Shown one piece after another: positions 5,908 to 63,421 of a stretch of 64,000 nucleotides of DNA (position 1 is the first letter of the stretch; every line of letters starts with the position of its first letter). This DNA is from Joostella atrarenae. GTDB taxonomy: Bacteria; Bacteroidota; Bacteroidia; Flavobacteriales; Flavobacteriaceae. The notes under the pieces were generated by a model that ran no database searches, was not told the DNA's origin, and worked only from the letters and a program-made list of their open reading frames with translations. A program made the position numbers and the translations under genes. The stretch is from assembly GCF_021764745.1 (NCBI RefSeq), contig NZ_JAETXX010000003.1, forward strand, positions 186,001 through 250,000, given 5' to 3'.

Positions 5908-6272
5908 ATTTAGTTTTAGAGAAGCAAAATTACTCCATCCCCAACCTGTAGTATGAAAATTATGATGCATATAATACACTTAATGTTGCATTTTATCTAA
6001 GGTCATATATTAAGGCTGCAAAGAATTTCCCTAAAGCAAGCACACTAGGACGCAGCTATAGGGTGTCTTTTTTAAGTTCGTCTTGAGTATTTCTTTTCTA
6101 AGACCTAACCTAGTCACACCCTACAATTACCTATGACTTATGGAACTAAATTGAGATACCATATATTATTACATCTCGCATACCTTAATACGGAAATAAC
6201 ATTTTACCGCGTTTACGTATAGAGACTTTTAACTCTTTCTCATAGCATACAAACTAAAAATATCATTTCAAT
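5904..6272. other. Intergenic region, holds promoter of GH5 copy 1
   Basis: This 369-base gap contains the promoter/operator described at 5925-5990. The rest (about 6000-6272) is AT-rich, lacks an open frame with coding character, and shows no RNA gene or clear terminator for the frameshifted gene ending at 6273. A GGGTGT/ACACCC pair near 6063 and 6116 is too widely spaced to call. Confidence 0.6.
5925..5990 (-). promoter_or_regulatory. Site A: direct-repeat operator plus -7 box, GH5 copy 1
   Basis: On the plus strand TGATGCA starts at 5963 and TGTTGCA at 5984, exactly 21 bp apart. CAAAATTA at 5925-5932 reads TAATTTTG on the coding strand and fits the Bacteroidota -7 consensus TAnnTTTG. It lies 30 bp downstream of the repeat and 22 bp before the ATG. 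No -33 TTTG is visible, as expected if an activator replaces it. The same layout recurs at five other promoters in the window. Binding by the hybrid two-component regulator is inferred. Confidence 0.7.
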
Positions 6273-7977
6273 TTAGATATTATTAACAGTATCTACAATG
6301 TTTTTTAATTCATTTAAGGAAGCTTTAAATGGTTGAAAACAAGGTATGTGCACCACTTCATAATCTACATAAAGCGTAGGACACAGGGGTGAACTTTTTT
6401 TAAGAGCAACCCACTCCTGCCATTTTCCATTATATAACTTAATTGCTCCTCTAGCTTCCGTTACATCAAACCCCTTATTTAACTTGTGTTTGGCCAATAA
6501 GATTTGTATTCTCCAGACCTGCTCTATAATTTCATATTTTATTCGTCCATAAGAAGCTGAGACTTTTAAGAATTCATCATCAACTACATTTGGCAAGTTT
6601 ATTTGTTTAGATAATTTTTCAATCTCATACCAATCTTTAATATAATGTTCTTTTTCAGCCAAGACTTTTTCGGTAAAATCGTTTTTTACAATATCTTGCA
6701 AATCTATGCCTGCCAAGTAATGATCCCTTACATACCAGGGGTTGGTCCAACCGTACTGTGTTGCTTGTCCGTAATACACGGCATCAGTTGATAATAAGCA
6801 AAGTTTTCTGAATTTTTCAGCATCACTTTCTGATAGTTTTAAATGATTAAGTGCATAATCATAAAAAATGTCTTCCTCACTCTTCTTGGGATGAAGGGCA
6901 AACTCCCTAACCATATATTCGTTAAGTTTAATCCAGAGTTCGTTATTAAAATAAGGGTCTACCCAACCATCTCCCCAGGTCCAGGTCCAAAACCCTTTTA
7001 TTTTTTCATCTGTATATAAATCTTGAAGCCCTTTTTTGTTTTCCTTCATTTCAGACCAACCTTCTATCACGCCTTTTCCTATGTAATAAGGATGACTGTT
7101 TCTACCATAAATCCCTGCTTGATTCGTGGAAATTTCTACTATTTGTTGATGTTTTCCTAAGCCAATAGTCTTATTAAAAGGGTTACCTCTTAAAAAATCA
7201 TTATTTACATGCTTTATCGAAAAAAATTAAGTTATCATGAGGCTCCACTGCATTAGTCGCTTTTAAATAAAATTCTGGCTTGGTATGAAATTGACTAAAA
7301 TCCCAAGTTCTGTAAATGAGTTTTTTATTGCGTTTCACACAAATTTCATCACGAAGTAAATTAATGAGTATAGAATGCTCTTCTGGTGTTGTAGCAGGAG
7401 AAGTTCCTCGATGAAAAGGGGTGTCGTGCAAGTAAGTTTCTCCATGACGAATAGTTAGCCCATCAACTTCAGGGAAGCGTTTAAAAATTTCTGCTATTTG
7501 TGCTTTTAGTAACTTCTGGGTCATTTCTTTCTTAATAGACAATTTGCCATCGATAGACATTTCTTCTTCGTACTTTTTTAAAACCGATTTTGGTACTACT
7601 AAAACATCGGTAAAAGGGTAGATTGGAACATCATATTTTTCCGCAATATCTATACGCGTTTTAACATTTGCCGCATGACGTTGTATCCACATTTTCTCCG
7701 CTGATTTTTCAGGAACTATATTATCTTCAAAATCATCATAAGTCAGTCCACATTGAATTTCGATTTTTGGCACTTGACCTGTATAGCCTAAAGATTTTAT
7801 ATATTCTGGTTGCGTATATTCAGATTCAAAGTGGGGTTCACCTGGGTTATGATGAACCATGTTCAGTAGTATAGGGTACCTGTCCCTTGTTTCAGGTTTA
7901 GGTGTGTTTTCATCCATTTTTTCACAGCATAAAAGCAAAATTATTGCGAAAACTGATAACTTTAATGGGGTGTACAT
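6273..7977 (-). pseudogene. Unrecognised lipoprotein, probable glycosidase-like; frameshifted
   Basis: The first frame (7977-7201, 258 residues) starts with a lipoprotein signal (LLLCC) and ends NLIFFDKACK. The second frame resumes upstream of 7070 and runs to 6273. At the A7 run 7220-7226 (T7 on the coding strand), removing one base gives NLIFSIKHVNNDFLRGNPFN and joins both frames. That restored text matches the intact paralogue at 20706-22472 (NLIFSIKHNRYHRMNPF). The complete product would be about 568 residues. Shared blocks are NPGEP near the N-terminus, RTWDFSQFHT, KGVIEGW and GDGWVDPYFNNELW. No family is recognised with certainty. Either this is a recent pseudogene or the extra base is a sequencing error. 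Confidence 0.8.
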
Positions 7978-8383
7978 AGTTTTAATTTATTTTGTTAAAA
8001 TATATTATAATAGGGTGAAAAGAAAACACTTCAATACATCAGCTTTCAAGATTTGTTACCGCCAAATGTATTTATTACGTTCTTACCAATAAAAAAGGAA
8101 AGAAAATCATAAATACAGATTTTACTGTAGCATTTTCATGACTACTCCTTTTTCAATAAGGGAAAATATTTAAACTCCAAAACAAAATGTAGTATTGGCT
8201 TTGGAGTTTAAACTTTTACTATTGAACTCATCTTGACTTTTTCTATTTCCTAAAAAACGCTTAAAATTCACCCATATTTTACTGTTTTTATTAGTCGTAG
8301 CGATACTATGACTTCTAAAAACACCTTATCTGGTCAAATTTTATTTCATTTTCGGTTAAACACGAAAAGTCAAGCTGGGTTCT
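7978..8383. other. Intergenic region without a gene
   Basis: This 406-base gap separates the end of the FG-GAP gene from the frameshifted lipoprotein. It holds the 13-bp inverted repeat at 8169-8212 and a second 10-bp inverted pair, CTTGACTTTT at 8232-8241 and AAAAGTCAAG at 8365-8374. No direct-repeat operator of the type seen at 5962 was found here, and no credible open frame. Confidence 0.5.
8169..8212 (-). terminator. Possible terminator hairpin after the FG-GAP gene
   Basis: TTTAAACTCCAAA (8169-8181) and TTTGGAGTTTAAA (8200-8212) form a perfect 13-bp stem with an 18-base loop. It lies about 170 bases downstream of the FG-GAP gene on its coding strand. The following T-run is weak, so a terminator is only one reading; the symmetry would also suit a protein-binding site. 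Confidence 0.4.
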
Positions 8384-11300
8384 TTATTTTATTCTTACAG
8401 ATTGAAGAAATCCATCATTTTTAGCTGCTAGAATATAATTTTTGTTTTTAACAGTTATAGTTGTCAAGTCTTTAACATCACCACGAAGGTAAAGACCACT
8501 ATTGGTTGCGGGAATATCTTTAAAACTCCCTCGTCCATCACCTAAAAGCAATAGACCTATTCCTGCGTCTGCTCTAGGTGTTTCCACTTCTGAAGCGTAT
8601 AGATTCCCGGCTACTAGAGCATCTAAATGACCGTCTTTGTTATAATCATCGACTAAAACCTGATTTATTGGTGATATTTGGGCAGCATTAGGTAGTTGAT
8701 GTAAAATAAATTTTCCATCTTTATTTTCCAAATAAACACTAGCAAACGATTTAACTTGGTAATGTAAAGCGTTTTTAAGCTGATTTGGGTTATATACTTC
8801 GTTTAATGTCGCTTTTGAAAACGCATCATAAGTTTTAAATTTTTTCTTTAATGATGGAATTTGTTGAGAAGAACAAGATCTTCCTCTCACGGGGTATTTC
8901 TTCCCTTCATTAAAATAACTAAGAACAATATCGTTTTTATTATTGCTATCAAAATCACTAAAATAGATATCAAAAGTCTCATCCTCTTCAGCCTTATATT
9001 TATAGTTCAAACCAAGGTTCCCAACAATAAAATCTTGGTCGCCATCATTGTCAAAATCTCCAGAATTTATACTGAACCACCATCCTGTGGTATCTAAATT
9101 CAATCCCCAATCTTCAGATACATCTTTAAATATTCCTTCGTTGTTTTTAAATACTTTTATTGGCATCCACTCTCCCACTACAATAAGATCATCCCAGCCA
9201 TCTTTGTCTATATCGGCAAAAGACGCAGAGGTTGCAAGTCCGAGTTGTTTTAAAAAAGGTGCTTTTTGCGCAGTTATATCCTTAAATTTCGGATTACCAT
9301 TAGAGCTGATATTTTCTAATAAAAAGCTATTTGCTGGGTGTGGATAATTCCCTGGAACTAAACGACCAGTAACAAATAAATCTAAATCGCCATCTTTATC
9401 AAAATCATTAGCATACACTCTATTTCCACTACTAATCATTTTGGGCAAGGTAACTTTGCTTTTTTTAAAGTTTCCTTTACCATCATTTACATATAACCTA
9501 TCCTGTAACAATGGAGAATTATATGGGAATTCATTGCCTCCACTTACTATATAAAGATCATTGTCACCATCCATATCAGCATCAAATACTAATGCACCTA
9601 AGTCTTCATGGTTACGATCGTTGATAAGTATTTTTGTTTTCTGTTGTTCAAACTTACCTGTTGTAGTTTGAAAAAACAAACCACCAGGATAACCTTTAGC
9701 GGCACCTATATAGACATCGTTAAGACCATCTCCATTAAGATCTCCTGTAACTAAACCTGGCCCAAAACGGGACGTGCGGTGCGGTAAAAGAACCTCTGAC
9801 TCAAAATCGTCATATACATTTTCTTTATGTCTGTAAACCAACAATGAATCTGTAGAATTTTCAAAATACGTATTATTTAGAGGTTTTGGAGCATTAGTCT
9901 TTGGTTGGGCATTAGCATATAATAACTTTAAGTTTTGATTAGTGACTACATTCACTAACGTTTGCTCTTTTAAATCTGGCCAAATAATTTTAATACTGTC
10001 AATTTTCTTTGATTTTCCAAGACCGAAACTTAATTTAGGGGCTACTGATGATTGAAACCCGCGAGTTAATGTAAGTTGTTGATGCTGTAAACCACCATTT
10101 GCGTATAGTATTGCTTTGGTGCCTATGCCAAATTTATTTTCATCTTTCCCCTCAAAACTAAGTGTTAAAAAGTTTTGGTGCTCAGAACTAGTGTTTTCGT
10201 AAATGGAAACAACATCGTCAATATTATTCGTAATGATTTCTATATCCCCATCATTGTCTAAATCAGCATAAGTACTTCCATTCGAAAACCCTTCAAAAGA
10301 TATTCCCCAAGCCTCGTTTACTTTGCTAAATGTTAAATCCCCATTATTCTTAAATACAAAATTATCTATTCTTTCAGAGGGTATATTTAGAGATTTTTTA
10401 AGTAAACTATCCTTATGCTTTTTTTCACCTTCCAAAGAGATAAAGTAATCTCTATTGTTAACTTCCCTCCTAGTTCCGTTTGATACAAAAAGGTCTTTAA
10501 GCCCATCATTATCTAGATCAATTAGAAGTGGACTCCAGCTCCAGTCTGTAGAAGAAACACCTGCTAGCCTGGATATATCGCTAAAAACAGGTGTCCCATC
10601 TTCTTTGTTTCCTCTGTGGATTTGAAGGCTGTTTTGCATGTATTGCATACCAAACCCAGCTTTAACATTTCCATAGAATAAATCTGGATTCATACTTAGC
10701 ATATTAGCCTTTGAGCGCCTGTTACTAGCAGGGTTCATGTCTAATTGAATAATATCTTGTAAACCGTCATTGTTGTAATCGGCTATATCTACCCCCATTC
10801 CGTAGAAAGAGAAATGTTCTGTCGATTCCATTATCTTATCAGTAAAGGTTCCATCCTGATTATTTATATACATCATATCTGGTGTGTTAAAATCACTAGA
10901 AACATATAAATCATCCCATCCATCGTTATTAAGGTCACTTACTGTAGCACCTAATGAAAGTGAATACTTAAGCATACCTGCTTCGTTTGTGACGTTTTTA
11001 AAGACTCCATTGTCATTTCTATACATATGACCAGATTGTGCCATAGTCACATTATTAACAGCTTGAAGGTATTGATATGGTGTAAAGTTCACTGTTGTTG
11101 GTGGATAATTAGCAACATAAACATCTAAATCACCATCTCGATCATAATCAAAAAATGATGCCTGAATACTATGACCTTCATCTGCTAAACCATATTCAGC
11201 AGCTTTTTCCGTAAATGTCATGTCGCCATTATTGATAAAAAGCTGATTAATGTGAGGATAACTTTGACCGCTTACTGAACAATAAATATCTAAATAACCG

Positions 11301-11697
11301 TCATTGTTAATATCTACCATTGTACTCCCTGTATACCAACGTTTATCTCCTTCTAAATTTGCTCTTTCAGTAATATCTTCAAAAACTAAGTTTCCTTTGT
11401 TGAGATATAACTTATTCGAAACCATATTACCTGTAAAGAAAAGATCTATTAATCCATCATTATTTATGTCTCCTGCTGAAACACCTCCACCTAAATATAT
11501 ATATATGGATTAGTAAAATAATTAAGCGTATCCGATTCTGTAAGCGTGTTGGAAAACTTTATGTGGGTTTGGTTAGAACTTAAACCTTTAAAGATGGGTG
11601 CAATACCGTTTTTTTGTTCCTGATGATGCTTTTCTTTATCATTAATACAAGCAACAAGGAAACCAGATAAAAAAATAATTAACAGATTTTTTTTCAT
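8384..11697 (-). pseudogene. FG-GAP/VCBS repeat protein with ASPIC-UnbV domain, frameshifted at an AT tract
   Basis: A 68-residue frame (11697-11491) starts with a lipoprotein signal (FLVACIN) and ends NPYIYI. The main frame (1,013 residues from 11425) begins inside the first FG-GAP repeat. At (AT)6, 11495-11506, removing one AT unit gives NPYIYLGGGVSAGDINNDG and joins the two. The restored protein would have about 1,100 residues with many Ca-binding-like D-x-[DN]-x-D-G repeats. A UnbV/ASPIC block lies about 450-505 of the main frame (LTRGFQSS, FGLGK). Such proteins often sit next to SusC/SusD in Bacteroidota and may bind surface glycan, but their function is not established. It follows susD after a hairpin at 11743-11783. 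Confidence 0.85.
11495..11506. repeat. (AT)6 tract at the frameshift of the FG-GAP gene
   Basis: Six AT units sit about 65 codons after the lipoprotein start. Five units would put the signal peptide in frame with the FG-GAP repeats; six cause a TAG at 11493-11491. The tract could be a slippage switch, a fixed mutation or a read error. Confidence 0.75.
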
Positions 11698-17787: not shown

Positions 17788-18400
17788 TTTTTTAGTTAAG
17801 TTTAGTTAGACATAGAGTTTACCTTATTAGGTATAAACAGGCATGAAATTGGTATAATTTTAAATTTTGATTTAAATAAATGTCTCATCATTTTTAAATT
17901 TAGTTAGTTAATTAATTTTAGATTAGTTAAAGTTTTTCCAGAGTGATTATTAGTTTTTAATCTACCTGTCCGACTCTGTAAAGTTAATATCACACCCAGG
18001 TTTTAGCTATAAAAAATGATGCAATAAATGGTATTTTTGATGTACAGGTAGTTCTGAATCTTTGGTTTCACTTGGTTTCTTCTATAAATAAGCGTTTTAC
18101 GATTAATACCTGTAGATCATTCGTACGTTTCAAATTATTTATGAAAAAATACAATTGAATTTATATCTAAATTTTATATAACTATTTTTATTAAGTTGTA
18201 TTTGACCAGAACGAGAGAATCAAATTATAAGCTTTTTGATAGTCTAAAAATAACGAAAAGAGAAATAAACAACTGCAAACTGATAGTTCACACATTGTCG
18301 GAAAGTGTCATTTTATTTTTATAACTGTTTAAGAGAAAAAGTTGGTTTTAAAAGGCATTAACTTCTTTAATGCCAGCTTACGCAAGTGCACACGAAATAA
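17788..18400. other. Long gene-free region upstream of the SusCD operon
   Basis: It contains operator site C (17980-18044) and the outer IS-like end (18289-18314). The stretch 18045-18288 is AT-rich and shows no open frame, RNA gene or further operator. Confidence 0.5.
17980..18044 (-). promoter_or_regulatory. Site C: direct-repeat operator plus -7 box, SusCD operon
   Basis: TGATGCA starts at 18017 and TGATGTA at 18038, 21 bp apart. TAAAGTTA at 17980-17987 (TAACTTTA on the coding strand) is a near-consensus -7 box, 29 bp from the repeat. The leader to the first gene is long (about 190 bases), unlike the other sites. Confidence 0.65.
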
Positions 18401-30516: not shown

Positions 30517-31134
30517 AAACGATATTTAATTACTTTTAAAGTTTAACTTTTAGTTATATTAAAAGACTAGAACACCAACCTTATCTCTAATTATCTATTA
30601 AAGAAACACATAAACCAATTTCCGATAATGCAATATGGTTTATGTATTATTTATTGTGTTTAAAAGTCTTGGGGGATAAAATTACAATCGAGTATAAAAT
30701 TTGAATAGTAATTATGACTCACATAATATTAATTTTGAAGCAACGACATTAAATTCATTAAAAAAAACTACTGTTATCAGTATAATAGCCACAAAAAACT
30801 GAACTTAACATTCATATCCTCACATAAAAAATCATAATTAGGACTATCCTATATTTTCCAATATGCCTAGAGAAGAAACGTTTTTTATAGTATACTATTA
30901 AAAATAACCGATATAAACTAATAATAAAATACAGAGAAATATATACTACTAAATCTATACGACTTCATTAAAATGTGTAGAAATTAAATCCCCCCTTCAT
31001 TATCAACATGTTTTATACTTCCATATCATTCCTCATTTATTCTTTAGTTTCCAAACACATATACCGTTTGATTTCCTATTAATAGTGAACACGTAAATAT
31101 TAGTTTGGTAATGGAGAATTTAGTATATAACAAA
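30517..31134. other. Intergenic region between catabolic and enzyme operons
   Basis: This 618-base, very AT-rich gap follows the mutarotase gene and precedes the GH5 lipoprotein gene. It must hold a promoter for the latter. A half-site-like AATGCAATATGGTTTAT occurs at 30627-30643, but its 21-bp partner is missing. I see no RNA gene, no open frame with coding character and no clear hairpin terminator. Confidence 0.45.
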
Positions 31135-32811: not shown

Positions 32812-32859
32812 TTGTTAATATTCTATATTGTTAAGTAAGCTTTGTGTATAAAAAACCAA

Positions 32860-33816: not shown

Positions 33817-33827
33817 CGTTTCTTCAT

Positions 33828-36117: not shown

Positions 36118-36135
36118 TTTGATATGTTCCTGTTT

Positions 36136-37788: not shown

Positions 37789-37794
37789 GTGCTT

Positions 37795-38841
37795 CTAATT
37801 AAATTTTACCATTGCTTTTATTACTCCTGTTTCAGGATTTGTCCAACTGTCAAAATGTGCAATCATATCCGTAAAATCAACATGATGTGTAATAAATGAT
37901 TCCGTTGGAAATTGATCTAACACACTAATAACGTGTTCAAAATCTTCTGTTGTTGCATTTCTGCTGCACATAATGGTGGTTTCTTTAGCGTGTATTTTAG
38001 GATGATTAAAGACCAAATCGCCTTTCGACAAACCAACTAAAATATAACGACCACCATGCGCCATATAATCTGGACCTACTTCTAATGCTCCTTTAAAACC
38101 TGTAGCATCGAAAACCGCAGTTGCCATATCACCATTGGTAATTTTAGCTATTTTTTCTACGGGATTATCATTAACATTTATAACATAATCGGCGCCAATA
38201 GCGTCTTTGGTATATTTTAAACGGGCATCGTTTACATCTAAAACAATTACTTTTGCCCCAGCTATTTGGGCTAATTTCACCATTCCAATACCAATTGGTC
38301 CACAACCTACAACAACTACAGTTTCTCCTTCCTGAATATGAGCTCTACGGATAGCATGTGCGCCAATAGCCAAGGGTTCTACAATTGCCATTTCGTTATC
38401 AGTTAAATGATTTGCAGGCAACAATAAATCTTGGCGTACGGTTATAAACTCCTGCATTCCACCGTCCGAATGCACGCCTAATACACTTATATTCGTACAA
38501 CAGTTGGTTTTTCCATTTCTACACGCAATACATTTTCCGCAGCTTACGTAAGGCATAACGACTACTTGATCGCCTGCCTTTAATCCGCGTTCATTTTCAC
38601 CAATCTCAACAATTTCGGAAGCCAACTCATGTCCTAAAATTCTAGGGTATGTAAAAAAGGCTTGATTACCAGAATAAGCATGTAAATCCGTTCCGCAAAT
38701 CCCAACTTTTTTTATTTTTAATAAAGCTTCATTTTCTTTACGAACAGGTGCTTCTTTTTCTTTTAACAAGAACTTTCCTGGCTCATCACAAACTATATAT
38801 TTCATATTTATTTTTACTTCTTTTGGTTTTGGACAAAACAA
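37795..38841 (-). CDS. Zn-dependent alcohol dehydrogenase, probable L-galactonate 5-dehydrogenase
   Basis: The medium-chain dehydrogenase shows catalytic zinc ligands in VGICGTDLHAYSG and ILGHELASE. The structural zinc loop is CGKCIACRNGKTNCC, and the Rossmann motif is VVVGCGPIGIGMVKLAQIAG. The open frame starts at 38841, but Met13 (MKYIVCDEPG, 38805) is the better start because family members begin there. In the L-galactonate route (E. coli LgoD/YjjN type) such an enzyme oxidises L-galactonate to D-tagaturonate. It is first in the operon, before uxaA and uxaB, which fits. Substrate is inferred from order and family. Confidence 0.85.
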   Translation of the reverse strand: MFCPKPKEVKINMKYIVCDEPGKFLLKEKEAPVRKENEALLKIKKVGICGTDLHAYSGNQAFFTYPRILGHELASEIVEIGENERGLKAGDQVVVMPYVSCGKCIACRNGKTNCCTNISVLGVHSDGGMQEFITVRQDLLLPANHLTDNEMAIVEPLAIGAHAIRRAHIQEGETVVVVGCGPIGIGMVKLAQIAGAKVIVLDVNDARLKYTKDAIGADYVINVNDNPVEKIAKITNGDMATAVFDATGFKGALEVGPDYMAHGGRYILVGLSKGDLVFNHPKIHAKETTIMCSRNATTEDFEHVISVLDQFPTESFITHHVDFTDMIAHFDSWTNPETGVIKAMVKFN

Positions 38842-43032: not shown

Positions 43033-43098
43033 TAAAATTATTATATTAAAAGTCTTCACTATGGAAATTATGATGCATTAAATACTCTTAATGTTGCA
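43033..43098 (-). promoter_or_regulatory. Site B: direct-repeat operator plus -7 box, GH5 copy 2
   Basis: TGATGCA starts at 43071 and TGTTGCA at 43092, 21 bp apart. TAAAATTA at 43033-43040 (TAATTTTA on the coding strand) is a one-mismatch -7 box, 30 bp from the repeat. Around the repeat the sequence resembles site A (GAAATTATGATGCA in common), although the rest of the two promoters differs. Confidence 0.7.
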
Positions 43099-47241: not shown

Positions 47242-47591
47242 AAAGATTTGATTTTACTTTTATTTGTGATAACACTAATCCTTAAGGTTATTAACGGTAA
47301 ATGCAATATGTTTTATAACTTTACATTTATTACTCTCTGTAACACGAGTACTCCTTAAAGAAATAGTAGTTAAATAATTTGAAGTAAAAGTATTTTTACA
47401 ACTCAATATCTGCCCAAAAAAATGATGCAATTACTAGTTGTTTTGTTGCATTTTAACTACAAACAAAAACTAGTTTTGTTGTAAATATCAATAACTATTA
47501 AAATATATTTATTTTATCGATATTGATCTGATCATATAGTCACCCTGTATTTGTTCAAATAGAACCCGTATTCTTTACAGAGTAAACGTAA
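47242..47591. other. Intergenic region between regulator and GH31 gene
   Basis: It holds site D (47385-47450). Closer to the GH31 start, AAATGCAATATGTTTTAT (47299-47316) resembles 30627-30643. No terminator for the regulator gene is obvious. Confidence 0.5.
47385..47450 (-). promoter_or_regulatory. Site D: direct-repeat operator plus -7 box, GH31-GH5 operon
   Basis: TGATGCA starts at 47423 and TGTTGCA at 47444, 21 bp apart. TAAAAGTA at 47385-47392 (TACTTTTA on the coding strand) lies 30 bp from the repeat. The leader to the ATG is about 140 bases. Confidence 0.65.
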
Positions 47592-50500
47592 CTATTTTTT
47601 TAAATCTGAAGGTTGTATATTAAAATAAGTTTTGAAACATTTAGTAAAATAGGATGGTGAAGAAAAACCTACTTTATATGTAACTTCACTTATATTATAG
47701 TCTCCAGACTCCAATAACTCCTTAGCTTTTTCAAGTCTTATCTTTCTAATAAACTCATTAACTGTAACACCTGTAAGCGCTTTTACTTTTCTGTAAAGTT
47801 GACTCCTACTTAAAAATAATTCTGATGCCAACAATTCCACTCCTAAATCTGTTTCACTAATATTCTCATTAATGTATTCTAATATTTTTTTAATGAAAGT
47901 ACTGTCCTGTGTAGTTGTTTTACTCTTGGAGGGCTCAAGAATGCCTTGGTAATGTTTGTTAAATAAAATTTGTCTACTTTTTAATAATTGATTAAGCGTA
48001 GCCTTAAGCACATCCATGTCAAAAGGTTTACTTAAATACGCATCTGCACCAGAGTCAATTCCTTTTATACGATCTGCTACCATTGCTTTTGCTGTTAACA
48101 TCAGTAAAGGAATATGACTAGTTTTTAGGTCCTTTTTAATTAATTCACACATTTCAACACCATCAATAGAAGGCATAACAACATCTGTTAAAATAATATC
48201 TGGAGTTTTGTCTTTAGCTACTTCCAGGCCTTTTTGTCCATCTACCGCTGTTAAAACCCGGTATTTACTTTTTAGTTCATTTTTTAGATATTCCCTTAAC
48301 TCTGAATTATCCTCTACAATTAGTAGTGTATGTTTTTTATCTTGATTTTCTGAAACTTCTTGACTATCTACATCACTATTATTGACGTCTAGAATAGCGT
48401 CATCAATATTAGACACTTGAATATTTGTATCTACCTCTAGAGATGGCGTTATATCCATTTCGTTAAATATTTCATTGTCAGAAAAGTGGTCTTTTCCTAA
48501 AGGAAAATATATGGTAAATTTTGAGCCCTGACCTAATACACTTTCTACTTCTATTTTTCCTTGGTGTAACTCTACAAAATTTTTAACAAGTCCCAATCCT
48601 ATACCAGTACTACCGTAATAATTTTTGTTTAACTGTCCAACCTGATAAAATCGCTTAAAGATTTTCTTGTACTCTTTCTGGTCTATTCCCGGACCTGTAT
48701 CGCTAACAGATATTTTAACCACTTCTTTAACTTGGCCCTCCCCAAGTAAAGACTTATATCCGTTTTCTTTTACTTTACTTACCTCAACATTAATCATTTC
48801 GCTATCAGGGGTTACCTTAAAAGCATTAGAAATTAAATTGAACATAATTTTCTCTAACATACTAGGATCTAACCAAACTTTTAAATCATCTACGTTATTT
48901 TCAAGATTTAATGTTATATGGCGTTGTATAGCTTCTACCTCAAAGTATTCAACATTATTGGATACTTGATCAAAAATATTAACTTCCTTAGCCTGGATTT
49001 TCATTCTATTAGATTCTATTTTCCTAAAATCCATTAATTCATTAATAAGTCGAGATAGCCTACTGGCATTTTTATATATAATTTGATGCTTTCTTTGTAT
49101 CTCTATTGGATAGTTGTAATCCATTCCGTTTATAATATCTGTTATTGGATTGCTAATAAGGGTTAAAGGAGTTCTAAATTCATGTGATATATTAGTAAAA
49201 AACTGAAGCTTTTTTTGATTTAACCTTTCTTCTTGGAGCCTTTTCTCTCGTTCTAACTGAATATCTTGTTTTTGCTTAATTCTTTTGCGCATAAAATAAT
49301 CGAACATATATAGCCCTACCAAAAGTAATATAGTATATATCAAATACGCTATGTTAGACAACCAAAATGGAGGCAATACTTTTATTTTTAATTCTAAGGG
49401 ATGTTTGTTCCATATCCCATCATTGTTTGCCGATTTCACTTTAAACACATAATCACCTGAAGCTAAATTCGTATAGGTTGCACTCCTTGTACTACCAACA
49501 TAATTCCAGTCTCGATCCACCCCTTCTAAATAATAAGCATATTGATTCTTTTCAGGTCGGGTGTTGTTAATCCCCACATATTCTATAGTAAAAACAGATT
49601 GATCGTGAGTTAAAATTATATTTTCTGTTTGCGATATTACCTTGCTTAAAGGAGAATTTTCTTCTTCTGGAGACACTTTTTTATTAAAGATTTTAAAATC
49701 TGTAAACACCAAGTTACATTCACTGGAATTTATGGGTATTTCTTTAGGGTTAAAATAATTGACCCCTAAATAACTTCCAAAATATAATATTCCTTTATCA
49801 TCTTTTATAACAGCATTATTATTAAAATCATTAGATAACAATCCGTCTGAAACTGTATATTTTTTTACCTTATGAGTGTTTAAGTTTAAAGAAATGATTC
49901 CTGAATTACCACCAAGCCATATCTGACCATCTTCACATTCTATAACTAAAGAAATATAATTTTCTTTAAAATCTTTTATATGGTTTAGGTGTTCCATTTT
50001 GTTTGCTTCAGGATTATAAACAAACAAGCCTCCTCCTCCAGTACCTACCAAAATATTTCCGTTTTTAGTTTCAGTTATAGATAATATTTGGTGTATGCCA
50101 GAATAGTTTTGTCGCTGTGTAGACATAAGTTCCTTCATTGAAGCAACTGAAAACACACCTTCTTTACTTACATTTATTTTAAAAAGGCCTGATGTTGTTC
50201 CTAGCCAAATATTATTATTGGAATCGACATAAACCAACCTTGCGTCAATCTTGTGCAACCCATATGCTTTAAATACAGGCATATTGCAATGGATATATGT
50301 TTTATGCTCAGGGTCGTAGTAGTGTAATCCATTTCGAAAGGTTGCAAACCAAATTAAACCGTTAGTATCCTCTGCAATATTCATTATTTTATTAGATTTG
50401 AGGCTTCCTTTAGTGTTTTCTGTATTATAATTAATAAACCTATTACTTCCTTTTTTCAACAGATAAACACCTCCGCTCCAACTACCTAACCATACATTTT

Positions 50501-51824
50501 CCTTACTATCAATTAAAACAGATTGTATGTCATCACTATTTAAGCCCTTGAAATAACTTTCATTATGTTTATTTACATGATAAAACTCTTTTGTACTAGG
50601 AACATAAATATCCAATCCACCATCTTCCATACTAATCCATAACCTCCCAGACTTATCTTTTGCAATGTCGGTAGCAGAGCTTGCTTGAAGCGAGTTAGGA
50701 TTGTTCGCGATGCTTTCAATAGACTGAAATTTACTATATAGCCTATCATGGACACCAATTCCCTTATTATAATAACCTAGCCATATACGCTCATTGGAAT
50801 CCAAATACAAAGACCATATTGAATTTGATTTTAAACTATTCTTGTCAAATTTATTGTAGGTATAATGCTTGATTATTTTACCGTTTTTACTCAAATGTAT
50901 CAACCCATCGTTTTCAGTACCACATAAAATTTCATCGTTGCCCATATTAATTATAGACATCACTCTTTTATCTGATAAATCAAATGTATTGATACTATGG
51001 TTTTTTTCTGAAATTTTAATGACCCCCTTAGAATTGGTTCCCAGCCAAATATCGTCATCGCTGTCAATAACTATAGACTCTATTGGTGTTTTTACTTTTA
51101 TTGTATCTTTTTTATAAACTTGAACAAATTCTTCTAAAGTATCATTTTCACTATTAACATGCTTTAGTCCTAGATTTGTTGCAACATATAATTCTCCTCT
51201 AGAGTTTATTGCAAAAGAATTTACTGAAAAACCTCCAGTATCTATATTCTTTTCAGAGGAAATCTTAGATATTTTTAAGGTTTCTTTATTAATTCTTAAA
51301 ACTCCATGATTCAACACACCGAGAATTATATTTCCCGATTTATCTTGAATTATAGCATGCACAGAAACATTTTGGTTCTTTTCTATTCCAGAGACTCCAG
51401 TTAAATCAATACGCTCAAACACGTCAAAATCTCTGTTATATAAATTTAAACCATCATTGGTTCCTACCCATAATCTATTTGCATCATCTATGTATGTTGC
51501 ATAAACTACATCGCTACTTATTGACGATTGATCCTCCCAATTATATTCATATGAGTTATAATTAATCCCATCAAACCTAATCAGTCCTGCTCCATTAGTC
51601 CCGAACCATTTAAATCCATAACGGTCTTCTGTTATTGAATGAACAGGACTTTTGGACATCCCTTCTTTTATATTAACAAAATTAAAATTATTAGTCTGCT
51701 CTTGAGAATACATAAAATTTACCCAAACAAGAAGAGCAAAATAAACAATATAAAAATTATTTCGAGGCATTATAGTATTGGTTATAGGAAAGTATAGTTG
51801 TGATTTATGAGTGAATAGTTTCAA
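47592..51824 (-). CDS. Hybrid two-component system regulator (HTCS)
   Basis: The 1,410-residue protein joins sensor, kinase and DNA-binding parts. A signal peptide follows Met19 (MPRNNFYIVYF, 51770), the likelier start. Reg_prop beta-propeller repeats fill about 55-700 (repeated 'IWLGT..GL' strands), then a Y_Y_Y domain (about 740-815) and a membrane helix (about 821-842). The kinase has H881 in FFTNISHEFRTPLTLI, N1000, DTGPGID at 1042-1048 and GIGLGL. The receiver has D1214 in ILTDVVMP. An AraC-type HTH ends the protein (about 1315-1410, with LFLSRSQLYRKVKALTG). Such proteins bind an oligosaccharide in the periplasm and activate their PUL. AraC-type domains usually bind direct repeats, as found at sites A-F. 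Confidence 0.96.
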   Translation of the reverse strand: MKLFTHKSQLYFPITNTIMPRNNFYIVYFALLVWVNFMYSQEQTNNFNFVNIKEGMSKSPVHSITEDRYGFKWFGTNGAGLIRFDGINYNSYEYNWEDQSSISSDVVYATYIDDANRLWVGTNDGLNLYNRDFDVFERIDLTGVSGIEKNQNVSVHAIIQDKSGNIILGVLNHGVLRINKETLKISKISSEKNIDTGGFSVNSFAINSRGELYVATNLGLKHVNSENDTLEEFVQVYKKDTIKVKTPIESIVIDSDDDIWLGTNSKGVIKISEKNHSINTFDLSDKRVMSIINMGNDEILCGTENDGLIHLSKNGKIIKHYTYNKFDKNSLKSNSIWSLYLDSNERIWLGYYNKGIGVHDRLYSKFQSIESIANNPNSLQASSATDIAKDKSGRLWISMEDGGLDIYVPSTKEFYHVNKHNESYFKGLNSDDIQSVLIDSKENVWLGSWSGGVYLLKKGSNRFINYNTENTKGSLKSNKIMNIAEDTNGLIWFATFRNGLHYYDPEHKTYIHCNMPVFKAYGLHKIDARLVYVDSNNNIWLGTTSGLFKINVSKEGVFSVASMKELMSTQRQNYSGIHQILSITETKNGNILVGTGGGGLFVYNPEANKMEHLNHIKDFKENYISLVIECEDGQIWLGGNSGIISLNLNTHKVKKYTVSDGLLSNDFNNNAVIKDDKGILYFGSYLGVNYFNPKEIPINSSECNLVFTDFKIFNKKVSPEEENSPLSKVISQTENIILTHDQSVFTIEYVGINNTRPEKNQYAYYLEGVDRDWNYVGSTRSATYTNLASGDYVFKVKSANNDGIWNKHPLELKIKVLPPFWLSNIAYLIYTILLLVGLYMFDYFMRKRIKQKQDIQLEREKRLQEERLNQKKLQFFTNISHEFRTPLTLISNPITDIINGMDYNYPIEIQRKHQIIYKNASRLSRLINELMDFRKIESNRMKIQAKEVNIFDQVSNNVEYFEVEAIQRHITLNLENNVDDLKVWLDPSMLEKIMFNLISNAFKVTPDSEMINVEVSKVKENGYKSLLGEGQVKEVVKISVSDTGPGIDQKEYKKIFKRFYQVGQLNKNYYGSTGIGLGLVKNFVELHQGKIEVESVLGQGSKFTIYFPLGKDHFSDNEIFNEMDITPSLEVDTNIQVSNIDDAILDVNNSDVDSQEVSENQDKKHTLLIVEDNSELREYLKNELKSKYRVLTAVDGQKGLEVAKDKTPDIILTDVVMPSIDGVEMCELIKKDLKTSHIPLLMLTAKAMVADRIKGIDSGADAYLSKPFDMDVLKATLNQLLKSRQILFNKHYQGILEPSKSKTTTQDSTFIKKILEYINENISETDLGVELLASELFLSRSQLYRKVKALTGVTVNEFIRKIRLEKAKELLESGDYNISEVTYKVGFSSPSYFTKCFKTYFNIQPSDLKK

Positions 51825-52151
51825 AAAAACATCCCTCTTTTTTGTTATAATGTAAAATTACATTGAAAAAATAAAAATTCCAAAATAATGGCTATATGGC
51901 GTATATATTACAAAATTAGAAAAGTAAAAGAACTTCATGAGGTTCTCCCTGTCAAATGCCGAACCGCTGAGCGTGATTGATATTATTTAGCCACAAAAAA
52001 AACGAAGACTTTTGGTTACTCATCTAATATCATTTTTTTATAAGTAACAAAAAAACATAAGTGAACTCTTTGCTCACTTATGTTTTCAAGTGTTTTTTCT
52101 CAATAAATACAGTCATACCATATTCATTATTATATCTAGAAACATCAACTT
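51825..52151. other. Intergenic region upstream of the HTCS gene
   Basis: This 327-base gap must contain the HTCS promoter and holds the GH29 terminator (52052-52086). A less AT-rich stretch (about 51935-51990, around GCCGAACCGCTGAGCGTG) looks foreign to its surroundings but is not identifiable. No direct-repeat operator was found, so the regulator does not seem to control itself through that motif. Confidence 0.5.
52052..52086 (-). terminator. Rho-independent terminator after GH29
   Basis: AAAACATAAGTGA (52052-52064) and its complement (52074-52086) form a perfect 13-bp stem with a 9-base loop. On the coding strand an unbroken T-run follows. It lies about 65 bases after the GH29 stop. Confidence 0.85.
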
Positions 52152-53597: not shown

Positions 53598-53828
53598 AAG
53601 TTATAATTAATTTAAATTTATTTTGATGTTTTTTATTCGTTCCTTTAATTAACCATATCGATTAAGTTCAATCCTCGGAAAGTATTACAAAATTACCCTT
53701 AAGGTTGTTAAAAGAATAGCACAAATCTTTCATTAACTGTTAAGAATGGTGCACATTATTAAGTTTTTCTTATTAGCAACTATATTGTTTTACGTCTTGT
53801 TTACACAGGACTTAACCGCTGCCTCTTA

Positions 53829-59735: not shown

Positions 59736-59802
59736 CAAAATTACTCTGCCACCACCGAGTAACAATAACAACCCTGAAGCACTTAATAATACTTTTGATG
59801 CA
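59736..59802 (-). promoter_or_regulatory. Site E: direct-repeat operator plus -7 box, GH3 operon
   Basis: TGAAGCA starts at 59775 and TGATGCA at 59796, 21 bp apart. CAAAATTA at 59736-59743 (TAATTTTG on the coding strand) is a perfect -7 box, 31 bp from the repeat and 38 bp before the ATG. Confidence 0.68.
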
Positions 59803-59970: not shown

Positions 59971-61434
59971 TTAGCCTCTTATATTTATATGCTTATTTAA
60001 GGTTGATTTTAAATCTTCAACAATTGTTTTAAACTCTTTTTTATGTGCAAGATTTATATTCTCTTGAGGGTCTGATAAATTGTCATAAAGCATATCGGAA
60101 ATAAATCTTCCTTCACTATCTAAGTATTGGGTATAGCTAAATTGTTTTGATTTTATAGTTTCGGCGTTATGAAACCTTGCATATACATATTTGTTAATTA
60201 TATGATTAGGAGAATTTAAAATTTCTGCAAAGCTATTACCATCTAGGTGTTCTGGTTCTTTTACATTGGTTAATTCACATAGTGTTGGGTAAATATCCAA
60301 CATACTAATTAGAGAAGTGGTTCGTCTACCTTTAGTTTCATTAACTTTTTTTACAATTAACGGAGTAATTAAAGCATTGGTAAAACACGATTGCTTACAC
60401 CATAAAGCATGCTCTCCCAAATTCCATCCATGATCGCCAGACAATAAAACAATAGTATTATCATAAAGATTGTTTTCTTTTAATGTCCTTATAATTTCAC
60501 CTATCTGTGCGTCTACATAACTAACCGATGCGTAATAACCATGCCTTAACTTTTTAGCCTGAGAGGCTGGTATTGGTATTGTATCGTTGCTTATATTGGT
60601 ATAACTGCGCAATTCTCCATAATTATGCTTTGCTTCTACAGGAGCGTCTAAAGGAAAAAAATCATTTTCCGCTAAGTCAATTTCTTCTTCATTATACATA
60701 TCCCAATATTTTTTAGGAGCATTAAAAGGCAAGTGAGGTCTTATGAAACCTACTCCTAATAAGAAAGGCTTATTAGACTTAGCCAGCAAGTTAATCTTCT
60801 CTACGGCTATAGCTGCAGTTTTACCATCATAATATGCGTCATCTGAAACGTTAGCACTTTCCCATGCGGGACCTGCTGCTCCTAATGGTAAATTGGTCTT
60901 TTTGGTATACTCATTTTCTTCTGATTGATAATCTCTCCATAATTCCTGTTGCTTTAAGGTATTGGGATAATCTGGTCTACAAGGCATTTCACTCCATCCC
61001 TCTAAGGCATCATCGGGATGATGAAAAATCTTCCCAATAGAACAAGTGTAATAGCCATTATTCTTAAAGTGTTCTGGCATCGTTACACTATTGGGAGCAT
61101 CTTCATCAACACGAGCACCATAATCTACAAATCTTGTATATGTAGGGTGTAGCCCTGTTAATATACTTGCTCTTGATGCTCCACATACAGGTACAGATGC
61201 ATAGGCATTAGTAAATACCATACTATTGTTTGCTAGGGCGTCTATATTTGGAGATTTAATGTGTGACTTTCCAAAACAATTTAATTCTGGTCTTAAATCA
61301 TCAATAAAAATGATTAAAACATTTGGTTTCTCAACAGTTGGTATTTGTGCTTGCGTTTTTTGTTCTTTATTGGCAACAATTACTATTGTAAAAACAACAA
61401 TAAAAATAACACCAATTTTTTTTAGGTATTTCAT
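59971..61434 (-). CDS. Sulfatase of iduronate-2-sulfatase type (S1_7-like)
   Basis: The 487-residue exported protein (membrane-like signal, residues 8-21) shows FIDDLRPELNCFG (D45, D46) and the variant signature CGASRASILTG at 84-94, with C84 as formylglycine precursor. CxASR and the RPELNCFG block are typical of the iduronate-2-sulfatase-like branch, in contrast to the CSPTR type of the other two sulfatases. LSGDHGWNLGEHALWCK is a further landmark. It starts 6 bases after the GH29 stop and is co-transcribed with it. It probably removes a different sulfate ester from the same glycan. The sugar position is unknown. Confidence 0.92.
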   Translation of the reverse strand: MKYLKKIGVIFIVVFTIVIVANKEQKTQAQIPTVEKPNVLIIFIDDLRPELNCFGKSHIKSPNIDALANNSMVFTNAYASVPVCGASRASILTGLHPTYTRFVDYGARVDEDAPNSVTMPEHFKNNGYYTCSIGKIFHHPDDALEGWSEMPCRPDYPNTLKQQELWRDYQSEENEYTKKTNLPLGAAGPAWESANVSDDAYYDGKTAAIAVEKINLLAKSNKPFLLGVGFIRPHLPFNAPKKYWDMYNEEEIDLAENDFFPLDAPVEAKHNYGELRSYTNISNDTIPIPASQAKKLRHGYYASVSYVDAQIGEIIRTLKENNLYDNTIVLLSGDHGWNLGEHALWCKQSCFTNALITPLIVKKVNETKGRRTTSLISMLDIYPTLCELTNVKEPEHLDGNSFAEILNSPNHIINKYVYARFHNAETIKSKQFSYTQYLDSEGRFISDMLYDNLSDPQENINLAHKKEFKTIVEDLKSTLNKHINIRG

Positions 61435-61440
61435 AATCTA

Positions 61441-62520
61441 TTAAGGTGTATAAACTTTTCCAACTTCTTTTAATCTTTGTACTACATTTTCATCCAGTAA
61501 ACCGTTTGTATTTGGAGCCACGTTTAGCAATAAGTTACAGTTTCTCTTACCCAGAACTTTTAAATGTCCATTAACAATTTCATCTACAGACATCAACTCT
61601 TCTGTCGGGAAACTTTCTTTCCAAAACCACTTACTCTGTATGGTCGGCCCTTGGTGCGAGGCATAAGTATTGTCCTCTGGAGCCCAGGCCCAATCTCCAA
61701 GCGGCTCCTCAAAATGAAGAAAGTCATTTATTTCGTAAGCTTCTTTAAGTGTAATATACTCTCTACTGTCGGGATCCATTTGATATCCTTTACCACCTCT
61801 ATCTCTATTAAAAACACGCTGTACTTGGTAATGGTCCGTTACCATTATTCCTGGCTGCAATGACTTTATATAACCAACAATTTCATCATAGTCAGCTCTA
61901 TTCCAAACCGTGCCACAATTGCCCCAACCATCAATAGTTAATGTTGGAATCTCACCAAAGTTTGTCAATAATTCTTTTAACTGTTTTTTTATTAAAACTA
62001 TATCTTGACTAGTAATCGTATCCTCAATACCAAGAGTTCTATCCCAAATAGAAAAGTAGAAGTGTGGTTCTATATCTCTTTTTCTAAATTCATCAACATA
62101 CTCTTTTATTATATCTCTTCCCTTTAGAGGTGTAGAAGCAACATCATAATCTGTAGTTTCCGTATCCCATAAACAAAATCCATCATGATGCTTTGTTGTT
62201 AAAACAGCATATTTCATTTTAGCAGATTTAGCAGCATCTGCCCATTGACCTGCATCTAACTTTTTAGGGTTAAAAGATGCTGGGTCTTTGCCCGAATCCA
62301 CCCATTCAATCTCATAATAAGTCCCCATATTAAAATGGATGAACATACCAAATTTCAACTTTATAAATTCTTCTCTTAGTTTTTCCAATGAATATTGATA
62401 ATCTGAAATTTCTACTACCTGAAGAACTCCCTCTTTAGGCCTTTTTGACTCGTTCTTACATGAAAACAGTAATACTATCCCTAAAAAGATTATTAATATA
62501 TTTCTAAAACAAAAAATCAT
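61441..62520 (-). CDS. Short GH29 lipoprotein, alpha-L-fucosidase/L-galactosidase-like
   Basis: The 359-residue lipoprotein (signal ending LLFSC, C21) keeps the GH29 catalytic domain: KFGMFIHFNMGTYYEIEW, TTKHHDGFCLWDTE and the nucleophile D197 in LTIDGWGNCG. It ends soon after LLLNVAPNTNGLLDE, so the C-terminal beta-sandwich of many GH29s is missing. This is common in Bacteroidota. It is clearly a different branch from 52152-53597. It lies directly downstream of a broken T9SS gene and upstream of a sulfatase, under site F. Substrate by family is alpha-L-fucose or alpha-L-galactose. Confidence 0.9.
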   Translation of the reverse strand: MIFCFRNILIIFLGIVLLFSCKNESKRPKEGVLQVVEISDYQYSLEKLREEFIKLKFGMFIHFNMGTYYEIEWVDSGKDPASFNPKKLDAGQWADAAKSAKMKYAVLTTKHHDGFCLWDTETTDYDVASTPLKGRDIIKEYVDEFRKRDIEPHFYFSIWDRTLGIEDTITSQDIVLIKKQLKELLTNFGEIPTLTIDGWGNCGTVWNRADYDEIVGYIKSLQPGIMVTDHYQVQRVFNRDRGGKGYQMDPDSREYITLKEAYEINDFLHFEEPLGDWAWAPEDNTYASHQGPTIQSKWFWKESFPTEELMSVDEIVNGHLKVLGKRNCNLLLNVAPNTNGLLDENVVQRLKEVGKVYTP

Positions 62521-62819
62521 ATATGACTATTTTTATCCATTTTTAATATATATAACCCGTTATCTAATCCTGACACGTTAATTGATTTTAAATTATTGCA
62601 TTGTTTAAAAAGCGAACTTCCTCCCCTAAAATATTTTATGTCGAATTTTATCTGCATCAAGCGCTTTGTAAAAAAACCAATTCTATAATGCACCATAACC
62701 TTGATTGTTTCACCTAGTCGTGCGGAAGTTTGAGTTTGAACAACAACGTTTGCTGTATTTTGAGAAAAAGTAAGTATCAAGTAGATACTCTTAAAAATTG
62801 ATATTATTCTTGTTTTATA
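62517..62819 (-). pseudogene. Remnant of a T9SS-secreted protein, start codon lost
   Basis: The frame ends with a T9SS-like tail (INVSGLDNGLYILKMDKN) and overlaps the GH29 start by 4 bases. Upstream it reads KTRIISIFKSIYLILTFSQN, a good signal peptide, but the codon in front of that lysine is TAT (62819-62817) where ATG would be expected; no ATG is found before an upstream stop. Only about 100 codons join signal and tail, so the catalytic part has been deleted. Operator site F and its -7 box lie at the normal distance upstream, which supports this being a former first gene of the operon. What it encoded cannot be told. Confidence 0.55.
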
Positions 62820-63421
62820 ATTATAAAGTTTAATTGGTTTTAGTTAGAGCAAAATATATTATACTGCTAAAAAGGAATGAAAAAAATGAAGCCTATTGTA
62901 TAAATTTTGTTGCGCACCGCAAACTACCCAAGTAATACAAGTAATACAAGTAATTACAATCCAACCATTTCCTGTCACTTACACTCTTAGGAAGCCATTC
63001 CATTTGGGAAAAACAACTTCTAAACAATAATGAGGCTAGGTGTATATTAGCAAAATAAACACAATAAACACTTGATTTTAAAATAATATCAATGATTGAG
63101 TTTTGTATAATTTTGTCTTCATAAAATTTAGTTTATTTGGTTAATAATACTCAGAAATTATAATATAGAGATAGTTAAAGAGTCCTGTACCCTTCATTAG
63201 ACTAAACTGTGCTTGAGAAAGCTTAGGTGTTGTCATTTTAGATATTACAAGAAAAATTCAAAACCTATCATCTTAGTATAACTAAAATCTGTAGAATTAA
63301 GTCATGCTAAAGCCAATCATAAGTAAGTTTATTAAGGTTTAGAAACACCATTCAAAAACGTATATTAATTCAAAATTTCAGGATTTGGTTATTTTTAACC
63401 TAATCCCGTTTTCTAATCTAT
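62820..63421. other. Intergenic region at the upstream border of the PUL
   Basis: It contains site F (62851-62914) and a short 9-bp tandem (AAGTAATAC, 62930-62955). The rest, up to the recombinase gene, is AT-rich without recognisable genes, terminal repeats or tRNA. Confidence 0.45.
62851..62914 (-). promoter_or_regulatory. Site F: direct-repeat operator, degenerate, upstream of broken gene and GH29
   Basis: TGAAGCC starts at 62887 and TGTTGCG at 62908, 21 bp apart; each half differs from the consensus in its last base. CAAAATATA at 62851-62859 resembles a -7 box with one extra spacer base, 27-28 bp from the repeat. It is the weakest of the six sites but has the exact spacing. Confidence 0.5.

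What the first reader, a model, noticed from the sequence alone, without database searches (positions are those of the whole stretch)
5925..62914. Six promoters share a 21-bp-spaced direct repeat: candidate HTCS operator of this PUL
Seen: TGATGCA/TGTTGCA at 5963/5984, TGATGCA/TGTTGCA at 43071/43092, TGATGCA/TGATGTA at 18017/18038, TGATGCA/TGTTGCA at 47423/47444, TGAAGCA/TGATGCA at 59775/59796 and TGAAGCC/TGTTGCG at 62887/62908. Half-sites are always 21 bp apart, two helical turns. Each starts 27-31 bp upstream of a TAnnTTT[G/A]-like -7 box. They precede GH5 copy 1, GH5 copy 2, SGBP-SusC-SusD, GH31-GH5, GH3-sulfatase-beta-helix and the broken gene-GH29-sulfatase operon. The L-galactose operon and the 30516-18648 enzyme run lack it. 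Known: AraC-type domains commonly bind direct repeats, and HTCS proteins activate PULs. Inferred: the HTCS at 47592 binds here, in place of a -33 element.
Basis: partly seen in the sequence, partly recalled or inferred. Interest (0 to 1): 0.88.

Follow-up and report, generated by a model that had tools for sequence, protein, structure and literature searches.

The report
Shared control sites of sugar-digestion cluster
Ten promoters of one polysaccharide-digestion gene cluster carry the same paired DNA site at a fixed distance from the promoter, almost certainly the docking site of the cluster's own sugar-sensing regulator; this kind of site was already predicted in gut Bacteroides, but here its wider extent and exact spacing can be read off.

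Summary
They are very probably the operator of the HTCS at 47592-51824. A half-site model built only from 30 orthologous HTCS loci (TGCWWCAWWTGTNNTA, 16 bp, two copies 21 bp apart) ranks all six at the top of a 104-kb scan and adds four: 30706, 38863, 53717 and one 0.4 kb left of the window. So the claim that the L-galactose operon and the 30516-18648 run lack it is wrong. Operator plus promoter box at up to 3 mismatches gives 7 hits in the genome, all in this PUL (it misses three of the ten). The -7 box TAnnTTT[G/A] starts 37 bp after the downstream half-site starts in 7 of 10 own and 26 of 44 orthologue sites, at most 2 of 44 at any other offset. Eleven of 41 orthologous loci also have an outward-facing operator 59-60 bp away, mostly before SusC genes; the own PUL has none. 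Repeats averaging 21 bp were already predicted for 16 Bacteroides HTCSs (PMC3878776), so this is a new member of a known kind; rigid promoter geometry, a larger regulon and outward pairs are the additions. Binding is inferred, not shown.

The parts
47592..51824 (-). HTCS regulator, 1410 aa: Reg_prop propeller, Y_Y_Y, HisKA, HATPase_c, receiver (residues 1168-1277), AraC-type HTH_18 (1332-1409)
   Evidence: Pfam; closest solved chain for receiver+HTH is 12aw_A 'hybrid two-component system protein', E 9.4e-61
5954..5990 (-). operator A (16+5+16), score 28.8; precedes GH5 copy 1 (interrupted by an in-frame TGA) and sulfatase 1954-3666
5925..5932 (-). -7 box TAATTTTG of operator A, offset 37
18008..18044 (-). 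operator E, score 24.9; precedes SGBP-like 16798-17787 (family match below cut-off), SusC 13457-16768, SusD 11795-13444, FG-GAP/ASPIC protein 8384-11425 and two ORFs without a family
17979..17986 (-). -7 box TAACTTTA of operator E, offset 37
30677..30684 (-). -7 box TAATTTTA of operator H, offset 37
38834..38841 (-). -7 box TTGTTTTG (one mismatch) of operator I, offset 37; it covers the TTG listed as start codon of 37795-38841
43062..43098 (-). operator B, score 28.0; precedes GH5 copy 2 (same in-frame TGA)
43033..43040 (-). -7 box TAATTTTA of operator B, offset 37
47414..47450 (-). operator D, score 25.4; precedes GH31 44467-47241 and GH5 43360-44424
47385..47392 (-). -7 box TACTTTTA of operator D, offset 37
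53688..53695 (-). -7 box TAATTTTG of operator J, offset 37
59766..59802 (-). operator F, score 23.9; precedes GH3 57425-59698, sulfatase 55593-57419, beta-helix protein 53829-55583
59736..59743 (-). -7 box TAATTTTG of operator F, offset 38 instead of 37
62878..62914 (-). operator C, score 26.7; about 357 bp upstream of GH29 61441-62520, followed by sulfatase 59971-61434
62849..62856 (-). degenerate -7 box TATTTTGC of operator C at offset 37

Best explanation
The repeats are the binding sites (operators) of the HTCS encoded at 47592-51824, and they switch on the transcription units of this PUL. Proposed working: the periplasmic propeller senses a breakdown product of the polysaccharide; the kinase part phosphorylates the receiver; the AraC-type domain is freed and two copies sit side by side on one face of the DNA, each on a 16-bp half-site TGCWWCAWWTGTNNTA, 21 bp apart. 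The downstream copy ends 21 bp before a TAnnTTT[G/A] -7 box and so can touch RNA polymerase about where a -33 element would lie. Shown by computation: the sites, their link to this HTCS clade, the fixed geometry, the concentration in this PUL. Inferred: binding, activation, the signal, the contact with polymerase, and that each run of - strand genes is one transcript.
For: Chance: 6 sites against 0.04 expected. Orthologues: in intergenic DNA of 30 orthologous HTCS loci (39-50% identity) perfect TGCWWCA pairs number 11 at 21 bp and 0 or 1 at every other spacing from 8 to 44; with one mismatch 18 against at most 6. Out of sample (1): a half-site model from those loci only, scanned over 104 kb around the window, gives as its ten best hits ten intergenic sites on the gene strand, each before a PUL gene; at score 14 or more 11 hits (10 intergenic) against 0.3 in 20 Markov sequences. 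Out of sample (2): 11 further orthologous loci from named genomes, 16 hits at 18 or more, all intergenic, in 8 of 11 loci; 68 paralogous HTCS loci, 1 hit in 1388 kb. Specificity: operator plus -7 box at up to 3 mismatches gives 7 hits in the 3.99-Mb genome, all 7 in this PUL, reversed-pattern control 0. Phase: the -7 box, not used to choose sites, starts 37 bp after the start of the downstream half-site in 7 of 10 own and 26 of 44 orthologue sites; any other offset from 16 to 69 has at most 1 of 10 and 2 of 44. Protein: receiver plus HTH_18. In an HTH alignment 27 orthologues (from 42 loci) largely share S-S-P-S at the second recognition helix; the 17 paralogues caught (from 130 loci) mostly have other residues there. 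Precedent: PMC3878776 (passages).
Against: No binding, expression or transcript-start data. With two mismatches the spacing peak fades: 36 pairs at 21 bp against up to 30 at another spacing. Sites 38863 and 53717 have a poor second half-site; 62878 has only a degenerate box at offset 37, and 59766 has its box at 38. The strict pattern finds 7 of the ten operators (misses 53717, 59766, 62878), the looser one finds 9 (misses 53717) plus 4 hits elsewhere and 1 in the control; both patterns were written after seeing the own sites as well as the orthologue consensus. The HTCS gene has no site directly upstream among the 25 hits listed. Three of 11 new orthologous loci (L194, L198, L200) have no intergenic site at score 18, and 7 of 30 in the first set none at 16. 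The 16 hits of the new loci include two that overlap a stronger one (L195, L196), and L195 and L196 are nearly the same sequence; some new loci look close to genera already used (for instance L199 and G132). The 68 paralogous loci hold 4 intergenic hits at score 14. The recognition-helix comparison depends on a regular expression that caught a part of the proteins.
Confidence: 0.92

Rival explanations
1. The sites bind a different regulator (a global one or an unlinked AraC-type protein), and the HTCS acts elsewhere.
For: No binding data. The HTCS gene itself has no site directly upstream among the 25 hits listed. Four looser matches lie outside the PUL.
Against: 0 of 7 hits with the full pattern lie outside the PUL, 4 of 13 with the looser one. 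At score 18 the motif tracks this HTCS clade (8 of 11 new loci) and not paralogous HTCS loci (1 of 68). It has the layout published for HTCS sites.
Confidence: 0.05
2. The repeats are a by-product of duplication: promoters copied around the PUL with their genes, kept by descent rather than by function.
For: GH5 copies 1 and 2 are a real duplicate or gene-conversion pair, with 1 difference in the first 1268 coding bases.
Against: In that pair the flanks have diverged (20 of 100) and so has the 21-bp stretch between operator and box (9 of 21), while the operator (33 of 37) and the box stayed. Most other units begin with genes of different families. The same layout stands in orthologous loci of other genomes.
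Confidence: 0.02
3. The repeat is an extended promoter read by a sigma factor (for instance an ECF type) without an activator.
For: Fixed distance to the -7 box.
Against: The box is the ordinary TAnnTTTG of the Bacteroidota primary sigma factor (described in PMC7366714, passage). In the outward pairs of orthologues, all ten far operators that were printed lack a box at that distance, so the element exists without a promoter. No ECF/anti-sigma gene showed up in Pfam scans of 33 of the 34 window ORFs of 150 aa or more.
Confidence: 0.03

Closest known systems
HTCS binding motifs predicted in Bacteroides (Ravcheev et al. 2013, PMC3878776; passages seen; supplementary alignments not read)
   Same: Direct repeat of two conserved sites upstream of PUL operons; average distance 21 bp; some described as 16-bp sites with 5-bp spacer, the same 16+5+16 layout as here; reading as a dimer on one face of DNA, two turns apart.
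   Different: Another regulator clade, half-site sequence and bacterial group (here mainly one family, Flavobacteriaceae by the named relatives). The passages seen do not place the motif relative to the -7 box and describe no outward-facing pair.
HTCS BT4124 and BT4663 binding to susC promoters by gel shift (PMC11253607; passages)
   Same: Receiver plus AraC-type HTH; phosphorylation-dependent binding to promoters of the own PUL.
   Different: Shown experimentally there; here inferred. Different proteins and sites.
HTCS BT1754/BT0366 ChIP-seq (PMC3404733; passages)
   Same: An HTCS binds DNA next to the PUL that it induces.
   Different: No motif or spacing is given in the passages seen; BT0366 also bound near PULs that it represses, whereas the strict pattern here finds none outside the PUL.
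Primary-sigma promoter of Bacteroidota, -7 TAnnTTTG (PMC7366714; passages)
   Same: The box downstream of most operators fits it.
   Different: The -33 TTTG element was not tested here; in its approximate place ends the downstream half-site.

Membership tests
Hybrid two-component system (HTCS) | Sensor, histidine kinase, receiver and AraC-type HTH in one protein | tested here: met
   Pfam domains on 47592-51824; solved HTCS receiver-HTH 12aw_A matches over residues 1-240 of the 241-residue query; periplasmic location of the sensor is inferred
HTCS operator (PMC3878776) | Direct repeat of two conserved sites about 21 bp apart | tested here: met
HTCS operator (PMC3878776) | Conserved upstream of operons of orthologous regulators | tested here: met
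   30 loci (the model was built on these) and 8 of 11 new loci
HTCS operator (PMC3878776) | Concentrated in the regulator's own PUL | tested here: met
HTCS operator (PMC3878776) | Bound by the HTCS | not testable with these tools
   needs gel shift, footprint or ChIP
Bacteroidota primary-sigma promoter | -7 box TAnnTTTG | tested here: met
   8 of 10 own sites have TAnnTTT[G/A] at offset 37 or 38; 38863 has one mismatch, 62878 a degenerate box
Bacteroidota primary-sigma promoter | -33 TTTG | not tested
   the downstream half-site ends 21 bp before the box; no separate -33 scan was made

The most novel reading that the evidence does not exclude
HTCS-activated promoters across Bacteroidota share one rigid blueprint: two half-sites 21-22 bp apart with the downstream half-site starting about 37 bp before the -7 box, whatever the half-site sequence. 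In some clades the susC promoter carries a second, outward-facing and usually stronger operator without promoter at a fixed 59-60 bp, which would nucleate a four-subunit regulator assembly. The blueprint would let operators, promoters and regulator-target pairs be read from sequence alone. Support: motif-free test on 62 paralogous Flavobacteriaceae loci; outward pairs, 12 of 14 at 59-60 bp in 41 loci, none inward, 8 of the 12 before a SusC-type gene. Weak point: 68 more distant loci show only a faint signal at 22 bp and none at 21, and the own PUL has no outward pair.
Probability: 0.5. Interest if true: 0.62.

Novelty: new member of a known kind. Interest (0 to 1): 0.5.

Why it matters
HTCSs control many polysaccharide loci in Bacteroidota, yet in the papers whose passages I saw their binding sites are known mostly as predictions in Bacteroides. 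Here one regulator's likely target list (ten units, including intracellular L-galactose-type catabolism as well as surface enzymes) can be read from sequence and checked in some twenty other genera. The fixed distance to the -7 box gives a direct, testable statement about how an HTCS meets RNA polymerase, and a rule for finding PUL promoters and matching orphan HTCSs to targets.

Tried and rejected
Rejected: 'only six operons carry the site'. Rejected: a spacing-30 signal in the own scan (6 hits at 14 or more); of the seven hits listed, six fall inside ORFs and one reuses a half-site of operator 38863. Rejected: two outside hits, at C1:959833 and C56:132128, which lie in long ORFs (model scores 14.7 and 5.7); the other ten outside hits and the four were not looked at. 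Rejected: triple half-site arrays (third half-sites 21 bp on, score low and share a strong half-site). Rejected: an outward second operator in the own PUL; at 58-61 bp all ten positions score below 0, so that feature is seen in relatives only and the own susC promoter is among the misses. Not conclusive: motif-free geometry in 68 distant paralogous loci (lag 22: 18 placements against a highest bin elsewhere of 15; lag 21: 0). In that test neighbouring shifts of one repeat are counted apart; the printed lists hold 12 distinct promoters for 62 Flavobacteriaceae loci and 5 for the 68 others. In one search the 13 repeats at lag 21 come from 8 loci, and some are one repeat seen from both strands of a divergent promoter. 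No row was dropped from the 29 training sites, although one (G113, coordinate 30382) looks like coding or repeat DNA. The orthologue counts come from the loci that trained the model. HTCS loci with an internal stop (L035, L039) were left out of alignment A1, which used 18 orthologues plus the own protein. The search scored three candidates a genome, so more orthologues may exist. Gene boundaries outside the window are from a simple ORF caller of my own.

Not in print: in searches and in the passages read, I found no fixed HTCS operator to -7 distance and no outward operator pair; the supplement of PMC3878776, which holds upstream alignments, could not be read.
Full report
OBSERVATION. The six repeats are in the sequence at the stated places, each with half-sites 21 bp apart. 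The pattern occurs 6 times in the window against a mean of 0.04 in 100 dinucleotide shuffles. The window's ORFs of 150 aa or more are all on the - strand, so along the transcript the site reads TGCAACA-N14-TGCATCA.

THE REGULATOR. The ORF 47592-51824 has the full HTCS domain set. Two other long ORFs with the Y_Y_Y domain, 1412 and 1465 aa, lie on C6 and C67 (their other domains were not scanned). Their surroundings (77 kb) hold 17 matches to the motif at up to 2 mismatches, none intergenic.

THE SITE FOLLOWS THE REGULATOR. In 199 genomes of the family (own included, up to three candidates scored in each), 30 loci outside the own one encode close relatives of this HTCS (39-50% identity, 996-1458 bits), with a gap down to 752 bits for the next. 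I took up to 40 kb around each. In their intergenic DNA, pairs of perfect TGCWWCA occur 11 times at 21 bp and 0 or 1 times at each other spacing from 8 to 44; with one mismatch 18 times against at most 6; with two mismatches 36 against up to 30, so the signal is in the good matches. The 29 sites chosen by the heptamers alone show further conserved bases at the same places in both halves, giving a 16-bp half-site TGCWWCAWWTGTNNTA with a 5-bp spacer.

TEN SITES, NOT SIX. A single half-site model from these relatives, with no own sequence in it, was scanned over 104 kb around the window. Its ten best hits are all intergenic, on the gene strand, and before a PUL gene: 5954, 43062, 62878, 47414, 18008, 59766, -378 (C23:185622, left of the window), 30706, 38863 and 53717, with scores from 28.8 to 15.6. 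At 14 or more there are 11 hits, one of them coding, against 0.3 expected. The L-galactose operon (38863) and the 30516-18648 run (30706) do carry it. Genes after the ten sites: a 144-aa ORF and a GH5 left of the window; GH5 copy 1 with a sulfatase; SGBP-like, SusC, SusD and followers; GH5-GH39-GH32-GH3-unknown-GH120; the L-galactose-type operon (FucP-like permease, aldo/keto reductase, fuconolactonase-like, tagaturonate reductase, altronate dehydratase, Zn-oxidoreductase); GH5 copy 2; GH31-GH5; GH29 (with the HTCS gene next); GH3-sulfatase-beta-helix; GH29-sulfatase. That each is one transcript is inferred from strand and spacing.

OUT-OF-SAMPLE TEST. From named genomes, 11 further orthologous loci (L190-L200: Flavobacterium, Cellulophaga, Muricauda, Algibacter, Cytophaga sp. 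FL35, Euzebyella, Maribacter, Aquimarina and MAGs, two of them Saprospiraceae) gave 16 hits at 18 or more, all intergenic, in 8 of 11 loci; 68 paralogous HTCS loci gave 1 hit in 1388 kb. At 14 or more the paralogous loci have 4 intergenic hits. At 14 or more, intergenic hits in the 11 loci number 18 at 21 bp and 0-3 at spacings 16-20 and 22-27. Two of the 16 hits overlap a stronger one, L195 and L196 are nearly the same sequence, and some loci resemble genera already used. The three loci without a site at that score are two Saprospiraceae MAGs and one Flavobacterium MAG.

GEOMETRY. Counting from the start of the downstream half-site, TAnnTTT[G/A] starts at 37 in 7 of 10 own sites, one more at 38; in orthologues in 26 of 44 codirectional sites of score 15 or more, 36 of 44 with one mismatch. 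Every other offset from 16 to 69 has at most 1 of 10 and 2 of 44 perfect boxes. The box played no part in choosing the sites. The full layout is 16-5-16-21-box. With it, up to 3 mismatches, the whole genome has 7 matches, all 7 in this PUL, control 0; three of the ten operators are too degenerate for that pattern. The operator alone at up to 2 mismatches has 13, 9 in the PUL, control 1. I wrote these two patterns knowing the own sites. The GH5 pair is a natural experiment: coding 5' parts with one difference in 1268, upstream 20 of 100, operator 33 of 37, the 21-bp stretch 9 of 21, box kept.

DOES THE GEOMETRY GENERALISE? Without using any motif, in promoters of 62 paralogous HTCS loci (60 from other genomes, 2 own), repeats at lag 21 number 13 (in 8 loci) against a mean of 3.1 and a highest other value of 9. 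Anchored on -7 boxes, repeats at lag 21 and 22 pile up within 3 bp of the predicted position (16 and 20 placements; mean elsewhere 2.1 and 3.7, highest elsewhere 8 and 8), other lags from 17 to 25 having 0-1. Their half-sites differ, for instance GAACAGTTAACCCC. In 68 more distant loci the signal is faint (lag 22: 18 against a highest of 15 elsewhere; lag 21: 0).

OUTWARD PAIRS. In 41 orthologous loci, intergenic pairs of operators pointing away from each other (37-140 bp apart, one scoring 14 or more, the other 8 or more) number 14; 12 are 59-60 bp apart, start to start, in 11 loci (G113 twice); the two others share an operator with one of these. No pair points inward and 3 point the same way. 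In 8 of the 12 the gene ahead of the near operator was scanned and is a SusC-type TonB receptor (8 of 8 scanned); one stands before an ORF of HTCS size, the rest before shorter ORFs or none. The ten far operators printed lack a box at offset 37, so they are not second promoters; two weak ones were not printed. The far operator scores higher in 9 of 12 pairs (scores, orientation). Two of the 11 loci (L193, L197) are out of sample. The own PUL has none.

MECHANISM. Most likely a phosphorylated HTCS dimer lies on one face of the DNA with the downstream subunit ending about where a -33 element would begin, and activates by touching polymerase. Established elsewhere: HTCS receiver-HTH parts bind PUL promoters (PMC11253607, passages) and HTCSs bind next to their PULs (PMC3404733, passages). 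Inferred here: everything about binding and contact for this protein.

KNOWN OR NEW. Direct repeats averaging 21 bp, some 16+5+16, were predicted for 16 HTCSs of B. thetaiotaomicron in 2013 (PMC3878776, passages). The finding is a new member of that kind. The exact box distance and the outward pairs I did not find in the papers searched (passages); the supplement of PMC3878776 was not readable here.

Noticed in passing
window 3894-5903 and 40279-43008 (-): Both GH5 copies carry the same in-frame TGA directly followed by ATG inside the GH5 domain; the first 1268 coding bases differ at one place only while the flanks have diverged, which suggests gene conversion.
   Followed up: partly
window 31477-38841 (-): Operon for what looks like oxidative L-galactose breakdown: FucP-like permease, aldo/keto reductase, L-fuconolactonase-like, tagaturonate reductase, altronate dehydratase, PRK10083-type Zn-oxidoreductase.
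   Followed up: partly
window 38841: The TTG listed as start of ORF 37795-38841 lies inside the proposed -7 box; the first ATG, residue 13, is the likelier start and is where the family match begins.
   Followed up: yes
L049:12202-14827 (C23:178202-180827): A type IV secretion coupling protein and a DUF5712 protein lie left of the PUL, hinting at a conjugative element next to it.
   Followed up: no
orthologous HTCS loci, e.g. G019, G030, G113, G119, L193, L197: Second outward-facing operator without promoter box, 59-60 bp from the near operator, which mostly stands before a SusC-type gene.
   Followed up: partly
paralogous HTCS loci, e.g. L140, L142, L143, L146, L148, L183: Another HTCS class with half-sites of the type GAACnnTTnnCCCC, 21-22 bp apart, with about the same distance to the -7 box.
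   Followed up: partly
window 47592-53753 (-): The weak operator before GH29 (53717) may also feed the HTCS gene next downstream, which would make the regulator self-activating; in several relatives (G017, G084, G113, G132) a site stands before an ORF of HTCS size.
   Followed up: no
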